A stretch of DNA of 64,000 nucleotides from Desulfoscipio sp. XC116 (GCF_039851975.1 NZ_CP156660.1:2857035-2921034); one strand, 5' to 3'. Shown: positions 1-11,058, counted from the first letter of the stretch. Made by a program: numbers and translations. Notes: generated by a model from the letters alone, not told the origin.

Positions 1-355
1 AGTTCTGTAGTTCCGCTTCAGTAAACGCGTGTGGGATATAGTCTCTCGGCTCTTTTTGTGGTACTGTTGGCTCCGTAACGAAAGTCATCCCGCGTTTGCG
101 CAGATAACGTATGAAGCTGACAACAGGATATATTCTTGATCGGCATGAATTGTTTGCTTCCGTTTCGCGCTGGGCGCACCATGAATCCGCCATGTCCTGT
201 GACAACTCAGAAACATTGGGAAAATGCTTATCACAATACTTGTCGAACAGACTCAGATTAACTTCGTAAGAGGCTTCATTCCAACGTCCAGAAGCCTTCC
301 GAAAGGCAACAAACGCACGCATGAGCGGTGCAATGGAGGATATGAACTCACTCAT
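1..355 (-). CDS. Tyrosine recombinase, N-terminal part (second gene of RIT element 1)
   Basis: My translation from the ATG at 355 down to the window edge gives 118 residues beginning MSEFISSIAPLMRAF, with the helical SAM-like core-binding fold of phage-type integrases; the catalytic domain lies outside the window. The start overlaps the stop of the preceding recombinase (TGA at 350-348) by 8 bp in the form ATGAGTGA. The same 8-bp coupling joins the two recombinases at 2469/2462. Tandem overlapping tyrosine recombinases are the hallmark of RIT (recombinase in trio) elements, so this should be the second of three genes. The family call is moderately sure; the RIT assignment is inferred from organisation. 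Confidence 0.7.
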   Translation of the reverse strand, partial: MSEFISSIAPLMRAFVAFRKASGRWNEASYEVNLSLFDKYCDKHFPNVSELSQDMADSWCAQRETEANNSCRSRIYPVVSFIRYLRKRGMTFVTEPTVPQKEPRDYIPHAFTEAELQN

Positions 356-1589
356 GTGCAAACACCCCCTCCGGCACTGGAAACCGTTCTATACTGAGCG
401 CACACTCTTTGAGATGTTTAAAGTCGGCGCTGAGATATGCTTCCAGGGAATCGGGGGACGTATGACCAAGTGCTTTGCTGATAACAGGTTGCGGGACACC
501 GCCGCCAAGAAGCTCTGTTGCCACGCGGTGGCGAAACATGTGAAATCCCTTGCTGTCGCCAGCGTTTTGTCTGATGTTTGCGGCTTTCATTATCTTGTCG
601 GAAATATTGCCGATGCTTCCGCTCAACAAACGCCCATATGGCCGATTTTCAGAGATAAATATGAATTCACACTCGGTTTCCGGGCGTTTGGACACAAGAT
701 AGTCATAGACGGCATTGCCTACTATAACAGAAAGCGGCAACTCAAGGGGAGCGCCAGTCTTCTGCTGTTTGATACAGATTAGCTCTTTTTCCCAATCAAT
801 ATCATTGACTTTCAGACCTGCAATGTCACAGCAACGCAGCCCGGTATAAAGAACCAGTGAACCAACCGCCCTGTCTCTGAGCGAAAGCCTCGAATACTCA
901 TTTTCGAGAGCCTGTTTTATCTGATCCGTTTCATCCGGCTTCAAATACTGGATGTTCTTGCGGTGTTCGCGCAATTCAGGCAGGTAAGCCAGTATTCTCG
1001 TAAACTCAGAGTATTCAGGGTTCTCCCTTATGCAGGCTTTGAGAACTGCTGCGATGTCTTTTTTGTATGAGCAGCTCCGGCGCAGTGTGTCGTCCTCGCC
1101 AATGAAAACAGATAACACATCCGCCTCTGTAATCGCACCGAAAGTATTAATGCCTTTCTGCTGTAAAGCGTACAAAAAACTCGCGCCGTGACTCGCTTCG
1201 CATATGATCGTGGTTGCCTTCTTGTTCCGCCTGCTTTCTGATGCCCGATAACAGTCAACTACCGCTTTGAACTCCGGCAACAACAAGTGATACAGGCCGC
1301 GCTTGATGATCTGCTGCCGATGCCGTCCATCAGGGTACTGACCGCGATTGTCAAATCGCTCAATAATACCAAGGCAATTTAGTATGTTGCGCAGATAGCT
1401 CCGGGAAGTGGATTTATTCGCGTACTCTTGATAAATATCCTTGTACGACGTCCAACCATTTGAATCCGCCCTGGAGAGAATGTGGTTTATCTCGCGCCGC
1501 ACTTTTATTATATATGTGGCACTATAACCGGCCCTTTCCATGTAGCCGATTAGTTTGGGATAATTATCCCTTAGATTTTGTGTATTCAT
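348..1589 (-). CDS. Tyrosine recombinase, first gene of RIT element 1
   Basis: This 413-residue protein has an N-terminal core-binding region and a C-terminal catalytic domain. The catalytic residues are visible: Arg in YTGLRCCDI (about residue 253), His-x-x-Arg in HMFRHR (about 345), LGHTS, and the nucleophile candidate in EAYLS (about 386). It cuts and rejoins DNA through a 3'-phosphotyrosine and here presumably moves its own element. The ATG follows a strong GGAGGTG ribosome binding site. It overlaps the next recombinase by 8 bp. The 73-bp gap upstream (1590-1662) carries one arm of the inverted repeat described for this element's end. It looks intact. Confidence 0.85.
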   Translation of the reverse strand: MNTQNLRDNYPKLIGYMERAGYSATYIIKVRREINHILSRADSNGWTSYKDIYQEYANKSTSRSYLRNILNCLGIIERFDNRGQYPDGRHRQQIIKRGLYHLLLPEFKAVVDCYRASESRRNKKATTIICEASHGASFLYALQQKGINTFGAITEADVLSVFIGEDDTLRRSCSYKKDIAAVLKACIRENPEYSEFTRILAYLPELREHRKNIQYLKPDETDQIKQALENEYSRLSLRDRAVGSLVLYTGLRCCDIAGLKVNDIDWEKELICIKQQKTGAPLELPLSVIVGNAVYDYLVSKRPETECEFIFISENRPYGRLLSGSIGNISDKIMKAANIRQNAGDSKGFHMFRHRVATELLGGGVPQPVISKALGHTSPDSLEAYLSADFKHLKECALSIERFPVPEGVFAHE

Positions 1590-1622
1590 CTGTACACCTC
1601 CTGCTCGGAGTATACAGCATGA

Positions 1623-1707
1623 AAATAAAATCCATACCTTTCTATTGGGGAAAGGCTTATTATTACGCTGTTTTACTGAAGGTTCGGATTTTATTTATGT
1701 ACGGATA
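1623..1707. repeat. End of RIT element 1 with subterminal inverted repeat
   Basis: The arms AAATAAAATCC (1623-1633) and GGATTTTATTT (1686-1696) are perfect inverted copies. The reading frame of the disrupted recombinase loses its family sequence just outside them, after HDFR, at about 1707/1708. A smaller hairpin (CCTTTC/GAAAGG, 1637-1655) lies between the arms. I infer that this is the recombinase-binding end of the element that begins with the gene at 1589. The matching end of RIT element 2 is at 4105-4186. Confidence 0.55.
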
Positions 1708-2469
1708 ACGGAAGTCGTGCACTCTTGCGGGGTTTCCTGTAACCGCCCTAGCTTCTGGCAGTTTGTCCCAGAACTCATGGAACCAGCAATCAATAACTGA
1801 CTTATTGTAACAAGTTCCATCTTTATTCGAGAAAAATGCCTGCCTACCAGGCAATATGGATTCCATTATAGAATCATACTCCCTGCATACTTTCTGCAGA
1901 TCTTCGCTCATGAATACGATCCTGGCTTTCCAGCCTTTGGATTCCCGGACGGATATTTTTCCTGTTTCGAGGTTAACATCCTCTTTTTTCAGTAGGCGTG
2001 CTTCCGAGGAACGCAGCCCGCAGCAGAATAGCATGCGGAAAATGACCGGCATGACATATCTCCTGGTCGGAGAAAATGGTGAAGGAGGGCAATGATCAAT
2101 GGCCTTGAGAAAGGCTTTCAACTCTGCGGTCGTATAAATATGGGCCTCATACTTAACTTGCCTATCCGGGATATGACCGGGAATAACATAAACATTGTAT
2201 CCGAGCCCTTTCATGTATTTACCAAGCTGCCTTACCGGAGTAACCCTCCTTAAAAGGCCGTTTGGATGCTCTCCAGGCTTTGAATGGATCCACGTAGAGC
2301 CCATTTCTTGTGTGATTGTGCTCTCTCCCGGGAACTTCTCAGCCACAAGTAAATCAAAGTGATACAGTATTCGTGCTGAAGACTGGTAAGGATAACCTAA
2401 TGCCCGTTTCTGGCTGATAAAGTCTCTAATGCAAACACCAAGGAGGCTTTTAAATATATAATCAGTCAT
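1663..2469 (-). pseudogene. Tyrosine recombinase truncated by insertion (second gene of RIT element 2)
   Basis: The frame runs from the ATG at 2469, which overlaps the upstream recombinase stop by 8 bp (ATGACTGA). It encodes a core-binding domain and most of a catalytic domain: the first Arg is in CCGLRSSEARLL and the second motif in RVHDFR. After HDFR, where family members continue with HTFA-like sequence, the frame turns into unrelated YPYINKIRTFSKTA and stops. The C-terminal His and Tyr motifs are therefore missing. The break coincides with the end of RIT element 1, so I read this as an insertional truncation whose remaining 3' part should lie left of the window. Genuine family sequence covers about 1708-2469. 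Confidence 0.75.
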
Positions 2470-4045
2470 CAGAAGCACCACCCCTCCATGAAACCCTGCC
2501 TATGACGGATAGATTCAGAGCACACATCCGGAGCATGGATTCCTCCATGGACAGATAAGGCTTGTCGGATTCCTTTGAGGTATGTCCAAGCACATCAGTA
2601 ATGACTTGGTGAGGTACTTTAGCTGCAAGAAGTCTATGTACCATGGAATACCGAAAAAGGTGCACGCCCGTAGCAGTACCGTTTACCGGCTTAATCCCCA
2701 GGCAACCAAGCAGTCCGGAACAGATTGAGTAAACTGAAGTCAGTTTATTGTGAGGCGCCTGTTTCCGTAAGAATATATAGGGGTAATGGTCAGCTCGTTT
2801 CGGTCTCTCATTCAGAATGTAATCCATTAGTGCGTTGCCTACATCCGGGAGCAATGGTAGTACGAGAGGTTCACCTGTCTTTTTCTGGATCAGCCTGATT
2901 TTATCATTTCGCCAGTCAATCGCCTGAAAAGTGAGATTGCAGATATCACAATCACGCAATCCCAAATTCATGGCAAGAAGAATTACTGCTTTTGTGCGTT
3001 TAGACTCTCTAGCCAGATATGCAACCAGTTCTGTCTGATCCTTTTCAGAAATATATGCGGCAACCGAGCCCCGCTGTACAAAACCTCCCATTACAAGGCC
3101 GGACAAATCCTTTTTGATCAGGCCAACTGTAAAAAAAAACGCCAACAGTGAACGCAGGATTGGAAGTATAGTTGCCATGCTCCGCCTATTGCAGATGCAT
3201 GCAAATTTTGTAATGACAAGATGGATCTTTTCGGGTGTTAGAGATAGTAAATCCTTTAGAGTTTCTATCTCGGTGAACTCCACGGTTTTTCGGAATACAT
3301 AATCGTGCAGGTCGATTGTGGATTTGCTGAGATTACGCTGTTCCAACGATACAAGGTACTGTGAACGAATAGATTCTGTCTCTAAGCTGTTGCAGTTGGC
3401 ATCTCGGTTGATCATTCCCCACAGGAAGCACCCTGTATTTGCAACTTCCATCAGGACACGTGCCGCCTTACGGTTAATTTTCCACTTCCATTCCTTCATG
3501 GATCCACTATTACGTAAGTTGTTTATTTCTTGGATGAAGCATTTCATCAATGTTTCATCATATCCAAGAATACCAGCATCATAAAAATAGCGTCGTATGT
3601 CCATCCAGGAATGCTTGTATTGCCCGATAGTAGAATCCGTGAGATTGAGGTATTTCATTTCAATCTCAGCCTTGACAATGAGGTGATCAATACGCACGTC
3701 TGCTGCTATTGGGAACTCTCGGCCCTGAAAAAACTCATGAACTTTTGCATCATCCGGCATGGGTGGTTCGTTGAACGGTATGCCGTATTCATCTTGGGCT
3801 TGTGTACATGCTAATGCGTCAACCAGTCTTACGCAGCGAACATGCAGTGCGTGGCGTTCCGTCGAACCATTGTCATCTCTAATGAATGTATCATACAGCT
3901 CCGCGCACGGTTCCGTAATGCCAAGTGAATTAGCACACTTTAGCATTTGGTTGAAATAACGACGTCTAGACTCCCAAGTTTCATTGGCAAGTTCAAATTT
4001 CAACTGCTGCAAAAGGGTATTGATGACAGTTTCTAGTTTTGTCAT
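2462..4045 (-). CDS. Tyrosine recombinase, first gene of RIT element 2
   Basis: This 527-residue recombinase is longer than the 413-residue counterpart in RIT element 1. A substantial N-terminal region precedes the core-binding domain. Catalytic motifs are LGLRDCDIC (about residue 365), HLFRYS (about 465), LGHTS and KPYLS (about 497). The stop overlaps the next recombinase start by 8 bp. The start at 4045 has an AGGAGG-type site upstream. It is the first gene of the element whose end I place at about 4186, inside istA. No lesion is visible in this gene, although its partner is broken, so the element as a whole is probably dead unless complemented. Confidence 0.82.
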   Translation of the reverse strand: MTKLETVINTLLQQLKFELANETWESRRRYFNQMLKCANSLGITEPCAELYDTFIRDDNGSTERHALHVRCVRLVDALACTQAQDEYGIPFNEPPMPDDAKVHEFFQGREFPIAADVRIDHLIVKAEIEMKYLNLTDSTIGQYKHSWMDIRRYFYDAGILGYDETLMKCFIQEINNLRNSGSMKEWKWKINRKAARVLMEVANTGCFLWGMINRDANCNSLETESIRSQYLVSLEQRNLSKSTIDLHDYVFRKTVEFTEIETLKDLLSLTPEKIHLVITKFACICNRRSMATILPILRSLLAFFFTVGLIKKDLSGLVMGGFVQRGSVAAYISEKDQTELVAYLARESKRTKAVILLAMNLGLRDCDICNLTFQAIDWRNDKIRLIQKKTGEPLVLPLLPDVGNALMDYILNERPKRADHYPYIFLRKQAPHNKLTSVYSICSGLLGCLGIKPVNGTATGVHLFRYSMVHRLLAAKVPHQVITDVLGHTSKESDKPYLSMEESMLRMCALNLSVIGRVSWRGGASDD

Positions 4046-4104
4046 ATGTTATCCTCCTTCAGGCCTGTATCAGGCTGTCTAAAGGATAGCACTATATATG
4101 GATT

Positions 4105-4186
4105 ATTATCTTCAATTTTCAGCTATTGATTGGCTATATGCTTAAGCAGTTTTGCTGATTTTAAAGATAATACCATTTTGAGAATA
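4105..4186. repeat. End of RIT element 2 with subterminal inverted repeat
   Basis: The arms 4105-4123 (ATTATCTTCAATTTTCAGC) and 4154-4171 (GCTGATTTTAAAGATAAT) are near-perfect inverted copies just upstream of the first recombinase gene. On the minus strand the 41 nt inside the junction at 4186/4187 begin TAT and end CAGCAAAACTGC. The matching 41 nt of RIT element 1 begin TAT and end CAGTAAAACAGC. The agreement in length, position and end motif supports these being homologous element ends. Confidence 0.6.
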
Positions 4187-4942
4187 ATCTTTGGGGTGGC
4201 AAACCCTTGCAGGTATAATGGCTGTGCTGTAGTGTTCAGCCATCTCATGGTAGACGGCATTTAGCTGCTGATTATACCATCCGCCATTATGTACCACGGC
4301 CGTTTTTGCGTTGTCGGGTACTAGGATTTTTGCCACACCGTTGAAATACTGGTACATGTGGATATGGGCACTGATCCATGCCTGCTGCTTTTCATTGATG
4401 AATGCTTCCGCGTAGGTATACTGGCTGTAGGTCATAACACCGACAAAGATGTAGGCTTTGATGATTTCACTGGTATCCGGATCAATGATGTGTGCTGGAT
4501 CTCCCGCCCAGTCAACCTCAACTTGTTCCCCTGGTTTGCGGTTGATGTGCATGGTAGCACGGCGTTTCTGCTCGTCCTGCTGGATGTAATAGCAGAACTG
4601 CGAATACATGAGTGGTTCTTGGCCGTTCAGGCGGCAATCCTCCATGTATTCTGTCCACAGGAGCTTTTTGCTGACCCCATTACGGAATAGTTCTTTGCGG
4701 ATGTAGGTTAGATTTGGCATCCTTTTGGTTCTAATGTCTTTGCCTGCTTTAGGAAACATCAAATCTTTTAAAGCCTTATCCGTCATGAGTTCGTCCAATG
4801 GCCATGCAAGATTTAATTCTTTTGCACGATGCTGGACTTTGACAACAGTTTTCTGTGCAACATTGCAGCTTTGCATGATGTTGCGCTGGGTGAATCCAAG
4901 ACTGGTTAGCCTTAGGATTTCTCGATACTTGGTCATAATCAT
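4142..4942 (-). pseudogene. istA: IS21-family transposase IstA, truncated
   Basis: The first ~250 residues match IS21 IstA: an N-terminal helix-turn-helix (MTKYREILRLTSLGFTQRNI) and a DDE core with VEVDWAGD carrying the first Asp and VPDNAKTAVV carrying the second. Family members continue HPKDKASVE, but here the frame departs after HPKD into YSQNGIIFKISKTA and stops. The departure point (4186/4187) is the end of RIT element 2. The last catalytic Glu region, the rest of istA and any istB are missing from the window and would lie to the left if the insertions are simple. The gene is not functional as it stands. Confidence 0.85.
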
Positions 4943-5004
4943 GACATCCTTATAATGGATTTACATCTTGCGATGCATAATTCCATTATAAGATTTATAG
5001 AAAC

Positions 5005-5069
5005 TGATTTCCGTTTAACGGAATCATGATCTCCCAAAACCCGGAATGTTGATTTCCATGTACCGGACA
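5005..5069. mobile_element. IS21-type element terminus with two internal repeats
   Basis: Two related 20-bp copies lie upstream of istA: TGATTTCCGTTTAACGGAAT at 5005-5024 and TGATTTCCATGTACCGGACA at 5050-5069. Read outward on the minus strand, the outer copy starts TGTCCGG, matching the 5'-TG terminus usual for IS21 elements. Multiple transposase-binding repeats near each end are typical of the family. I place the element boundary at 5069. The other end is not in the window. Confidence 0.6.
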
Positions 5070-5094
5070 GGTGATGAATTTTGCTCCGGAATAC

Positions 5095-5214
5095 TCACGT
5101 CCTACCGGTGTACCATTCAATGAAAGTCCTGCTGTCTCGTATATAGCAGCCAATTGTGTTCCGACTAAATTCTTTGCTCTTCAGATACACCTCAAATCCG
5201 CTTAAATCAAGCAC
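5095..5214 (-). pseudogene. N-terminal fragment of a tyrosine recombinase
   Basis: A GTG at 5214 opens a 39-codon frame reading LDLSGFEVYLKSKEFSRNTI and ending FIEWYTGRT-stop. This is the first two helices of a SAM-like integrase core-binding domain. In the +1 frame the sequence continues VGREYSGAKFITC up to the IS21 terminus at 5069, so the gene appears to carry a frameshift and then the IS21 insertion. A GGAAGGG ribosome binding site lies upstream inside the loop of a strong hairpin. It may be the original integrase of the prophage or island, but that is inference. Confidence 0.5.
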
Positions 5215-5375: not shown

Positions 5376-5919
5376 TTATTCTTCTTCGTTTTCCGGCTGT
5401 ACTTCTTGATCATCTATTATTTCATACTCGGCTTCAATATCGCCATTTATCATCTGAAGGAAGAGCTTCTTCCTGGCTTGTTCATTTTGGCTGGTATCCA
5501 ATATAAGCTCTTTCTTTTCAGACCATTCCTCCGGCATCCTGTTACGCAGGAAAAAGGATATTGCCTGAGCAGAGGGTGGTTGATGGCGTTTTATCTTTTC
5601 AATCTTGGTACGTTTCTTGCCATTTTTATCATCTTCAACAGTTGTCTTGATTTCTTCATACTCATAGCCGTTGCAAAGTTTTAAAAGTGAATTTTCCACC
5701 TCGTTACATAACACGCTCCTGCCCAGATTTACTAATTCAGAGAGTGTTTCATGCTCCTTACAATATCTATACCAAGTGTCAGGAGATATAGATAATTTCG
5801 AACATACTTGCCTTTACTGTATCTCCCTGCATTATCCAATCCTTAATGTCCGAGAATCGGGGCAATATGTCCGTTTCATACTTCCTTATTTTATTTGGAA
5901 TTCCTTTTCTGCTTCCCAT
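5376..5919 (-). pseudogene. Phage terminase small subunit-like protein, frameshifted
   Basis: The ATG at 5919 follows GGTGAGGTG and starts MGSRKGIPNKIRKYETDIL...WIMQGDTVKAS, then meets a stop. In the neighbouring frame the protein continues CSKLSISPDTWYRYCKEHETL, then the VENSLLKLCNGYEYEE and RHQPPSAQAISFFLRNR segments typical of small-terminase or HTH phage proteins, ending with an acidic tail. The shift falls near 5808-5815 and is explained by one extra G in AAGGCAAG. The intact protein would be about 180 residues. Small terminases recognise phage DNA for packaging. No large terminase is present, so this is a prophage relic. Confidence 0.65.
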
Positions 5920-5954
5920 ATCACCTCACCTACTCCTTCTGCAATTATGGCAAC

Positions 5955-5993: not shown

Positions 5994-7181
5994 TTATTTT
6001 GTCAAACCAAACTTTCTTTTTATCTCATGTGAAACAGACTGTAGTTCTGGATATAATCTAACTTTATTATATCCAATTTGAATAAGCTTTTGTTTAATTT
6101 TTGATTTTGTACCCTTACTAATAATTAGTTTTTTTATATATTCACAATTCTCACCCATAGTATTTTTGCTATATTCTACAAACTTAGATGTTCTATTAAC
6201 AATTGGAAATATAGAAAAATTACCATTTTGGCTTGTAATTCTTTTGTTATTTAATGGCCCAATCACAGCTAAGGGTAAAACACTATCATAACTACCTGTG
6301 TATTCTAACGGCTCATATCCATTTAACTCTTCTTTTTTTAACAGACATATATTAGGTATATATTTATAAGAAGAAATACATCTATGCATTTTATTACTTG
6401 AGTTTAGCTTTATTGGGTCTAATACCCATACAACTGGTTCCTTATCGTCTTCATCCATACTAAAATCATCTACTTTCAAGGCGAATGCTAATGCAATTAG
6501 TGGGTCTGTTGTCCAATCAAGTAACCTTGTTGGTAATCCATGATGCTGCATAATAAAAAGCCATTCCCACTCATTATCAGGAATATAATCTAAATATGGC
6601 CATGATAATGATTTAAATTCATTAATTAGCTTTATTTCTATATCATTTATCTCTTCTATTGAACAGCTATTCTTTAAAAACTGTACATAAATACTTGGAA
6701 TCAATTCCCACTCAGCGCTCTGACCCCTAAACCATAGCAAATTTGCTTTTTCGTTATCTGGTTCGTTTAACTCATCATTTAATACACCAATTTTTTCTAT
6801 GTATTTTTCAAGGCTGTCAATAATGCCACTTTTTTCAAAACATTCTTTGGACTTTTCAAAATCCTGCCCCGAGTAATTTACATATAATGGATTAATAAAT
6901 TCATTTTGTCCTTTAAACACAGTTCCCCAGGATGATTTTGATAATTGACCAATATTACCTTGTTTAAGTCCCTTTGCGTATTTGTTTTTGTAGTCACCAT
7001 TTATTCTTAAAAACCATTCTGAAGATTCATGAAAAAGTTCATTGATTCCTTCTGATTCCATTAACTTTATTAATGGTTCAATACTTTTCCCTTGTAATAA
7101 TTTCCTGTCTGTTAAAATAATATTTAATAAAGGTTCACCTTTTTTCCTATTAATAAATTGAACTATATTTTCTTTTTCCAC
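5994..7181 (-). CDS. FRG-domain protein
   Basis: This is a protein of about 395 residues with an FRG domain, named for its conserved Phe-Arg-Gly. It contains LLWFRGQSAEWELIPS (about residue 150), then EWLFIMQHHGLPTRLLDWT and DPLIALAFAL, the most conserved block. The biochemical role is not established; FRG proteins are frequent in phages and defence islands. The frame is open from 7190 (GTG), but the AAAGGAG site touches that codon, so the GTG at 7181 has better spacing. The gene is markedly AT-rich and flanked by terminators on both sides, so it looks like a self-contained cargo unit. Unlike its prophage neighbours it shows no frameshift. Confidence 0.8.
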   Translation of the reverse strand: MEKENIVQFINRKKGEPLLNIILTDRKLLQGKSIEPLIKLMESEGINELFHESSEWFLRINGDYKNKYAKGLKQGNIGQLSKSSWGTVFKGQNEFINPLYVNYSGQDFEKSKECFEKSGIIDSLEKYIEKIGVLNDELNEPDNEKANLLWFRGQSAEWELIPSIYVQFLKNSCSIEEINDIEIKLINEFKSLSWPYLDYIPDNEWEWLFIMQHHGLPTRLLDWTTDPLIALAFALKVDDFSMDEDDKEPVVWVLDPIKLNSSNKMHRCISSYKYIPNICLLKKEELNGYEPLEYTGSYDSVLPLAVIGPLNNKRITSQNGNFSIFPIVNRTSKFVEYSKNTMGENCEYIKKLIISKGTKSKIKQKLIQIGYNKVRLYPELQSVSHEIKRKFGLTK

Positions 7182-7259
7182 AATATTCACTCCTTTATGC
7201 AGTTAATATTCTGCAATTAAGGTATAAACCCTTCTATTAAACATTATTTTAATAATCAG

Positions 7260-10508: not shown

Positions 10509-11058
10509 ATGGTCATTTTAACAGAATATGAGCTAATTGAAAACCTTGAAAAAAGTGTTTTTTGTAAAGAGCGCGGAGCAGATTCCCTGTCCCTGTTGTA
10601 ACGGGCCACTGGATGTCATCGGCAGCCGGCAACGCAAGTACATAAATGGCCTTGGCGATCAGATCGTGCTCATCATTCGCCGGCTCCGTTGTGAACACTG
10701 CCGTCGGATCCATCACGAACTTCCGGATATACTCGTCCCGTACAAACGCCACAGCAGAAAAAGCATTGAGGCGGTCATAGCCGGAGACACCGCACTGACC
10801 GTCACCGCTGACGAATCCACATTAGGCCGTTGGCGCAGTTGGTTTAGTGAAATGTATTATCACTTCCTGGGTTGCCTGGCCTCCATCGCTACCTTACTCG
10901 GTAACCAATCTGTGAAAGAATCGTCCTGTCTTTCCCAGTCTGCGCTCACAAGGATTTGGGACTATGTTGGCAACGCCACCGGCTGGCTGGCCAGAGTTGT
11001 CCGATCAGTGGCAAACACAAATTGTTGGGTACATACCCGTTCTGCATTCCCGTCCTGA
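10509..11058 (+). pseudogene. Zinc-ribbon transposon protein (DUF6431-like) with an apparent frameshift
   Basis: The longer frame runs from about 10537 and carries CPCCNGPLDV and RLRCEHCRRIHHELPD, a four-Cys zinc ribbon followed by a helical region. Just upstream, the ATG at 10509 opens MVILTEYELIENLEKSV in another frame. The two join if one T is removed from the T6 run at 10558-10563, giving NLEKSVFVKSAEQIPCP. So the gene either has a single-base lesion or uses slippage at the T run. Such proteins accompany Firmicute transposases; their role is not established. No good ribosome binding site is visible for the downstream frame alone. Confidence 0.55.

What the first reader, a model, noticed from the sequence alone, without database searches (positions are those of the whole stretch)
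1..5214. Four-layer nest of mobile elements, three layers built from tyrosine recombinases
Reading frames break at three points and each break coincides with the end of another element. A recombinase N-terminus (5095-5214) stops near the IS21 terminus at 5069. istA departs from its family after HPKD at 4186/4187, where RIT element 2 ends. The second recombinase of RIT element 2 departs after HDFR at 1707/1708, where RIT element 1 ends. The halves to the left of the nest lie outside the window.
Basis: partly seen in the sequence, partly recalled or inferred. Interest (0 to 1): 0.7.

Follow-up and report, generated by a model that had tools for sequence, protein, structure and literature searches.

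The report
Jumping genes nested in active-site codons
A bacterial chromosome carries three mobile elements packed one inside another, and the order is no accident: the two inner ones belong to families that insert at one fixed spot, the codons for catalytic residues of the enzyme that moves another mobile element, so they disable that enzyme as they land.

Summary
The left flank, recovered from the same genome, holds the missing halves in the predicted order: recB 3' half and recC of RIT element 2, then istA 3' half, istB and the IS21 left end. So IS21 contains RIT2, which contains RIT1. The fourth, outermost layer fails: IS21 ends at 5097, not 5069, and the recombinase fragment 5098-5214 merely abuts it (no duplication, no 3' partner in the genome).

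The nest follows from target specificity. All 8 RIT1-family insertions examined abut, with at least one end, the HxLRH box-II codons of a tyrosine-recombinase gene (five RIT recB genes, an integrase, two others). RIT2-family elements (3 of 3) sit in IS21 istA at the PKD(KPxxE) codons. Other RITs also sit at active-site codons: IS110 DEDD, IS3 second Asp, DDE first Asp or Glu, recombinase Tyr, ArdC HELTH. DruA, terminase and lysozyme targets are exceptions or unclear.

Joined flanks restore open frames; uninterrupted alleles exist. Inferred circle joints are near-perfect palindromes, and insertions occur in both orientations. RITs are known, but their target specificity was listed as untested; ISEc21 is a precedent with another mechanism.

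The parts
2..361 (-). RIT1 recB, 5' part (323-aa tyrosine recombinase; continues left of the window to L003:13390)
   Evidence: recC follows at L003:12357-13403
348..1589 (-). RIT1 recA, 413-aa tyrosine recombinase, intact
   Evidence: PF00589 1.6e-27
1679..1708 (-). RIT1 right terminal inverted repeat TTATCCGTACATAAATAAAATCCGAACCTT; the left one is L003:12273-12302, identical
1709..1714 (-). RIT1 target hexamer CTTCCG, in the HDFR codons of RIT2 recB; repeated at L003:12241-12246 beyond a 20-bp near-palindrome
1709..2481 (-). RIT2 recB, 5' half, cut at the box-II codons VHDFR; 3' half at about L003:12040-12240
   Evidence: join gives 335 open codons; Phage_integrase
2462..4045 (-). RIT2 recA, 527-aa tyrosine recombinase; recC is at L003:10997-12064
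   Evidence: PF00589 4.8e-17
4153..4186 (-). RIT2 right terminal repeat; left repeat at L003:10913-10946 next to a perfect 34-bp palindrome (10879-10912)
4187..4192 (-). RIT2 target hexamer AAAGAT, the K-D codons of istA HPKD|KPNAE
4187..4942 (-). istA 5' part (IS21 transposase); 3' part and istB at L003:9308 to about 10880
   Evidence: NF033546 4e-43
4943..5097 (.). IS21 right end region; terminal bases TGAGTATTC (minus strand) at 5089-5097; whole IS21 with its nest is 9,872 bp
5098..5214 (-). N-terminal fragment of an unrelated tyrosine recombinase that abuts IS21; not a nest layer

Best explanation
RIT1 and RIT2 are site-specific transposable elements of the recombinase-in-trio (RIT) kind, about 3.5-3.9 kb, with three tyrosine recombinases each. 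Each RIT family recognises one short DNA sequence: codons for conserved, mostly catalytic residues of an enzyme of another mobile element. RIT1 recognises the box-II HxLRH codons of tyrosine-recombinase genes; RIT2 recognises the PKD codons of IS21 istA. Inferred reaction: the element forms a circle whose joint is a near-perfect palindrome with two equivalent 6-bp cores, and one core recombines with the target hexamer. The element can therefore land either way round, and the palindromic spacer with the unused core stays on the 3' side of the target gene. Insertion disables the target enzyme. Because RIT2 recB contains the RIT1 target and istA contains the RIT2 target, the order IS21 > RIT2 > RIT1 follows from the chain of specificities. 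Shown: anatomy, junctions, restored frames, repeated independent targets, both orientations. Inferred: the circle, strand exchange at the hexamer, and the role of each recombinase.
For: Left halves in predicted order; restored ORFs and uninterrupted alleles. RIT1 family at box II in 8 of 8 insertions, in unrelated host genes including a phage/ICE-type integrase. RIT2 family in istA 3 of 3, one inverted. Other RIT families at their own motif repeatedly: IS110 DEDD in 12 loci with at least 8 distinct IS110 targets, IS3 second Asp 2, DDE first Asp 2 and Glu 1, recombinase Tyr 2, ArdC HELTH 1. Circle joints palindromic at 86/92 and 100/102 positions, far beyond shuffles. Spacer on the 3' side in 6 of 6 RIT1-family junctions in either orientation. 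Leftover hexamer fits the D-x-R codon pattern in 5 of 6 (p about 2e-7).
Against: No transposition or circle has been observed here. Some RITs sit in genes where the motif is not known to be catalytic (DruA, terminase C-terminus, lysozyme). One end of the RIT1 relative in L029 is not at a recombinase box. In several loci only one junction is readable (contig ends, rearranged copies). The target consensus was read from the same insertions that support it.
Confidence: 0.85

Rival explanations
1. Independent insertions piled up by chance in a mobile-element graveyard; the break points carry no specificity.
For: The region is rich in mobile-element remnants, and insertions into such genes are tolerated because they are dispensable.
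Against: Relatives in other genomes hit the same codons of different host genes 8 of 8 and 3 of 3 times, and other RIT families show the same pattern. Tolerance cannot fix the codon.
Confidence: 0.03
2. The first reader's four-layer nest, with IS21 inserted into an outer tyrosine recombinase gene whose 3' half lies to the left.
For: A genuine recombinase N-terminus stops exactly at the IS21 end.
Against: No 3' part on the left or elsewhere in the genome above 38% identity; no target duplication.
Confidence: 0.07
3. The target is recognised through a guide RNA (as in IS110-family elements) or a separate targeting protein, not by the recombinases reading the palindromic core.
For: IS110-family ISEc21 targets active-site codons of IS3 by an RNA guide (PMC11187229), so the same kind of target has an RNA-guided precedent.
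Against: The RIT terminal regions are short and carry palindromes whose cores match the target hexamer; each element holds only the three recombinase genes. No RNA was looked for.
Confidence: 0.08
4. For the second copy at C1:508 kb (RIT1 between 5' halves of RIT2 recB and RIT3 recB): homologous recombination between two RIT1 copies inserted in opposite orientation, rather than a second site-specific reaction of the leftover core.
For: 5'-RIT-5' (L081, L048) and 3'-RIT-3' (L083) arrangements both occur, as reciprocal exchange predicts; the shared 6,831 bp are identical.
Against: Copy A is complete and no reciprocal product was found, so an extra nest copy and a loss are needed; copy B ends exactly at the IS21 terminus, which suggests IS21 transposition as one step. 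An assembly swap at the repeat is possible.
Confidence: 0.5

Closest known systems
RIT (recombinase in trio) elements, Van Houdt 2012 (PMC3414803), C. metallidurans CH34 (PMC2864759)
   Same: Three overlapping tyrosine-recombinase genes, about 3.5 kb, terminal inverted repeats with a palindrome; reported insertions in a Tn6049-like transposase gene, in radC (twice) and in IS66 tnpA.
   Different: Those reports noted single insertions without a target rule; target specificity is listed as not tested (PMC10214605). Here the targets are resolved to codons and repeat across independent insertions.
Tn554-related elements, SE and GInt elements (PMC10214605)
   Same: Site-specific transposition by several tyrosine recombinases, with 6 bp carried from the donor site.
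   Different: Other gene sets (TnpABC; IntA-Tfp-IntB-Srap; GinABCD); the trio here has no TnpC/Srap counterpart. A 6-bp carry in RIT1 is only inferred from the leftover hexamer.
ISEc21 (IS110 family, PMC11187229)
   Same: Targets the codons around the second Asp of the DDE motif of IS3 transposases; two actinobacterial RITs found here use the same codons.
   Different: DEDD transposase guided by a seekRNA, inserted in one orientation; no tyrosine recombinases.
IS4321/IS5075 and res-site hunters such as Tn502 (cited in PMC11187229)
   Same: Mobile elements specialised on fixed sites of other mobile elements.
   Different: They target terminal repeats or res sites, not the codons of catalytic residues; different enzymes.

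Membership tests
RIT element (RIT1) | Three adjacent, overlapping tyrosine-recombinase genes in one direction | tested here: met
   413, 323 and 348 aa with short overlaps; integrase-domain match for recA
RIT element (RIT1) | Terminal inverted repeats of about 30 bp with an overlapping palindrome | tested here: met
   Identical 30-bp repeats and a 20-bp near-palindrome
RIT element (RIT1) | Mobility | not testable with these tools
   Different insertion sites in relatives and precise restored frames imply past movement; no assay
RIT element (RIT2) | Three recombinase genes between terminal repeats | tested here: met
   527 aa, interrupted recB (335 open codons when joined) and 355 aa; repeats
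IS21 family | istA and istB in tandem | tested here: met
   istA NF033546 4e-43; a 258-aa istB-like ATPase gene follows the istA 3' half
IS21 family | Short target-site duplication | tested here: not met
   Flanks TGCTATTCGC and CGTCCTACCG share none; a later rearrangement at one side is likely
Tn554-related element | TnpA, TnpB and small TnpC gene set | tested here: not met
   Three recombinases of 413, 323 and 348 aa and no TnpC-sized gene between the RIT1 ends

The most novel reading that the evidence does not exclude
RIT elements as a class are hyperparasites of mobile elements: each lineage has made codons of an active-site motif (tyrosine-recombinase box II or Tyr, DDE Asp or Glu, DEDD, HExxH) its attachment site, a target that is conserved, dispensable to the cell and present in many elements. 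A palindromic two-core attachment site lets them land in either orientation, so that copies can later recombine into chimeric host elements, and nests form in an order set by who targets whom.
Probability: 0.65. Interest if true: 0.78.

Novelty: new variant of a known kind. Interest (0 to 1): 0.68.

Why it matters
RIT elements are described, but where they go and how they move has been open. A rule that each family targets conserved, mostly active-site codons of other mobile elements gives defined attachment sites, so circle formation and integration become directly testable. It explains why recombinase and transposase genes are broken at the catalytic motif and why such nests have a fixed order, and it names short protein-coding targets of a three-enzyme recombination system.

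Tried and rejected
Chance nesting: rejected by the repeated target codons. Fourth layer: rejected (no 3' half, no duplication). IS21 end at 5069: replaced by 5097. RIT3 of copy B as a RIT inserted at an ATPase Walker-B motif: rejected, its recA is simply truncated there. The one genome-contig scan gave a single close relative; genome searches gave the rest. Degenerate or unresolved trios without readable ends: L073, L074, L045, L046. Paper searches found no report of this targeting rule, but the main RIT survey (Ricker 2013, Plasmid) and the Sphingobium study PMC5737581 are not held, so an earlier report cannot be excluded.

Full report
What is there. The window is C1:2857035-2921034 of a two-contig 4.26-Mb genome. 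I took 14 kb to its left as locus L003, where L003 position = window position + 14000 (identity of the overlap checked). Reading leftwards, the flank holds RIT1 recB and recC, the RIT1 left end, the 3' half of RIT2 recB (FRHGYAVHRLNQW), RIT2 recC, the RIT2 left end, the 3' half of istA (KDKPNAEGSVNGISTW), istB and the IS21 left end at L003:9226. Removing RIT1 leaves RIT2 recB as one open frame of 335 codons with a nearly complete integrase domain. RIT2-like elements in other genomes carry the uninterrupted recB (L042, L043).

What is not there. IS21 ends at 5097, not 5069: a second copy of this region elsewhere in the chromosome and a 63-bp relic both break at 5097. The recombinase fragment beyond it (5098-5214) is genuine, with a full-length 297-aa relative in L058 beside the same neighbour gene. 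But its C-terminal part is not left of IS21, nothing closer than 38% is in the genome, and the IS21 flanks show no duplication. The nest has three layers, not four.

Site specificity of RIT1. Relatives with recA identity of 49-87% were found in four further genomes of the class and more in the phylum. All eight insertions examined abut, with at least one end, the box-II HxLRH codons of a tyrosine-recombinase gene: RIT2 recB (VHDFR|HGYAV), RIT3 recB of copy B (AYDF|), a Desulfotomaculum RIT recB (VHDLR|HTFAV), a 427-codon phage/ICE-type integrase in L028 (FHDLR|HTHATLLL), RIT recB in L029 (VYDFR|), RIT recB in L032 with its 3' half on another contig (YELR|HNYAVENIN), and recombinases in L031 (IR|HSF) and L054 (VHDVR|HTFATRLL). 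The hosts are different recombinases; what they share is the motif. The other end of the L029 copy lies at an unrelated sequence.

Site specificity of RIT2 and other RITs. Three of three RIT2-family elements lie in istA of different IS21 elements at the P-K/N-D codons, one of them the other way round. At least three elements of another subgroup lie in DruA/DUF4338 genes at NNR|FLILPW. Two of a further family follow the first catalytic Asp of a DDE transposase (HSD|IKYGPYLP, QGD|MMTGPY) and one lies at the Glu motif (ASK|GKIERN). Outside the phylum, an Arthrobacter and a Rhodococcus plasmid RIT sit at the second Asp of IS3 (FHSD|RGTQYTS); two Cupriavidus RITs at the catalytic Tyr of recombinases (STTxRY|); a Priestia RIT in ArdC at HELT|H; and twelve loci of a rhizobial and sphingomonad RIT family in IS110 transposases at YVKPYVK|RxKNDAADA, with at least eight distinct IS110 targets. 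Exceptions or unclear cases are a terminase-like frame end and a lysozyme-like gene. That these codons are catalytic rests on established knowledge of the families.

Likely reaction. The two RIT1 ends carry an identical 30-bp repeat. One end has in addition a hexamer, a 20-bp near-palindrome and a second copy of the target hexamer. Joined as a circle, the ends form a palindrome at 86 of 92 positions for RIT1 and 100 of 102 for RIT2, far beyond base shuffles. Such a joint has two equivalent cores: using one or the other gives the two orientations seen, and the spacer stays on the 3' side of the target gene, as in 6 of 6 readable RIT1-family junctions. The unused hexamer fits the D-x-R codon pattern in 5 of 6 cases (p about 2e-7), as if it were a memory of an earlier target, like the 6-bp footprint of Tn554 and SE elements (PMC10214605). 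The circle and the chemistry are inferred.

Copy B. A 6,831-bp stretch from the RIT1 left end to the IS21 right end recurs at C1:508 kb, 100% identical and inverted. There RIT1 lies between 5' halves of RIT2 recB and RIT3 recB. Similar 5'-RIT-5' and 3'-RIT-3' arrangements occur in other families. Homologous recombination between opposite-orientation copies, or a second reaction of the leftover core, would explain them; an assembly swap at the repeat cannot be excluded.

Known or new. RITs are a described kind of element, and insertions into a Tn6049-like transposase gene, radC and IS66 tnpA were reported (PMC3414803, PMC2864759). Their target specificity was listed as not tested (PMC10214605). 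ISEc21 targets active-site codons of IS3 by an RNA-guided route (PMC11187229). I did not find the general rule for RITs, or the nest as its consequence, in the library held; the main RIT survey of 2013 is not in it. I file this as a new variant of a known kind.

Noticed in passing
L004:4867-11697 (C1:507866-514696): A second, inverted, 100% identical 6,831-bp copy of RIT1 plus the right halves of RIT2 and IS21, with RIT1's left end in the recB of a third, truncated RIT.
   Followed up: partly
G012 contigs C119 and C106 (L032, L088, L102): A second three-layer nest in a Desulfotomaculum MAG: a DruA gene holds a RIT, whose recB holds a RIT1 relative.
   Followed up: yes
L029:6740-10175: A RIT1 relative with one end at a recB box II and the other at an unrelated sequence (gctattca), flanked by inverted copies of an IS91-like element.
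   Followed up: partly
L081, L083, L048: RITs flanked by two 5' halves (L081, L048) or two 3' halves (L083) of their target gene, as if copies had recombined.
   Followed up: partly
L011:1501-1563 (C1:1534697-1534759): A 63-bp relic of the IS21 right end alone, 97% identical, elsewhere in the chromosome.
   Followed up: no
window 5376-5936: A small terminase-subunit-like gene, apparently frameshifted, stays next to the recombinase fragment in relatives too (L058, L059).
   Followed up: no
L003:7427-8802 and L055:5309-6741: AbiE-like gene pairs lie beside the IS21 left end here and beside an unrelated RIT in L055; coincidence or shared landing zone.
   Followed up: no
L055:6880-10323: A RIT with a perfect 32-bp palindrome inserted near the end of a phage-terminase-like frame, not at a catalytic motif.
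   Followed up: partly
window 5994-7190: A 398-aa FRG-domain protein (PF08867, 2.1e-24) just right of the nest.
   Followed up: no
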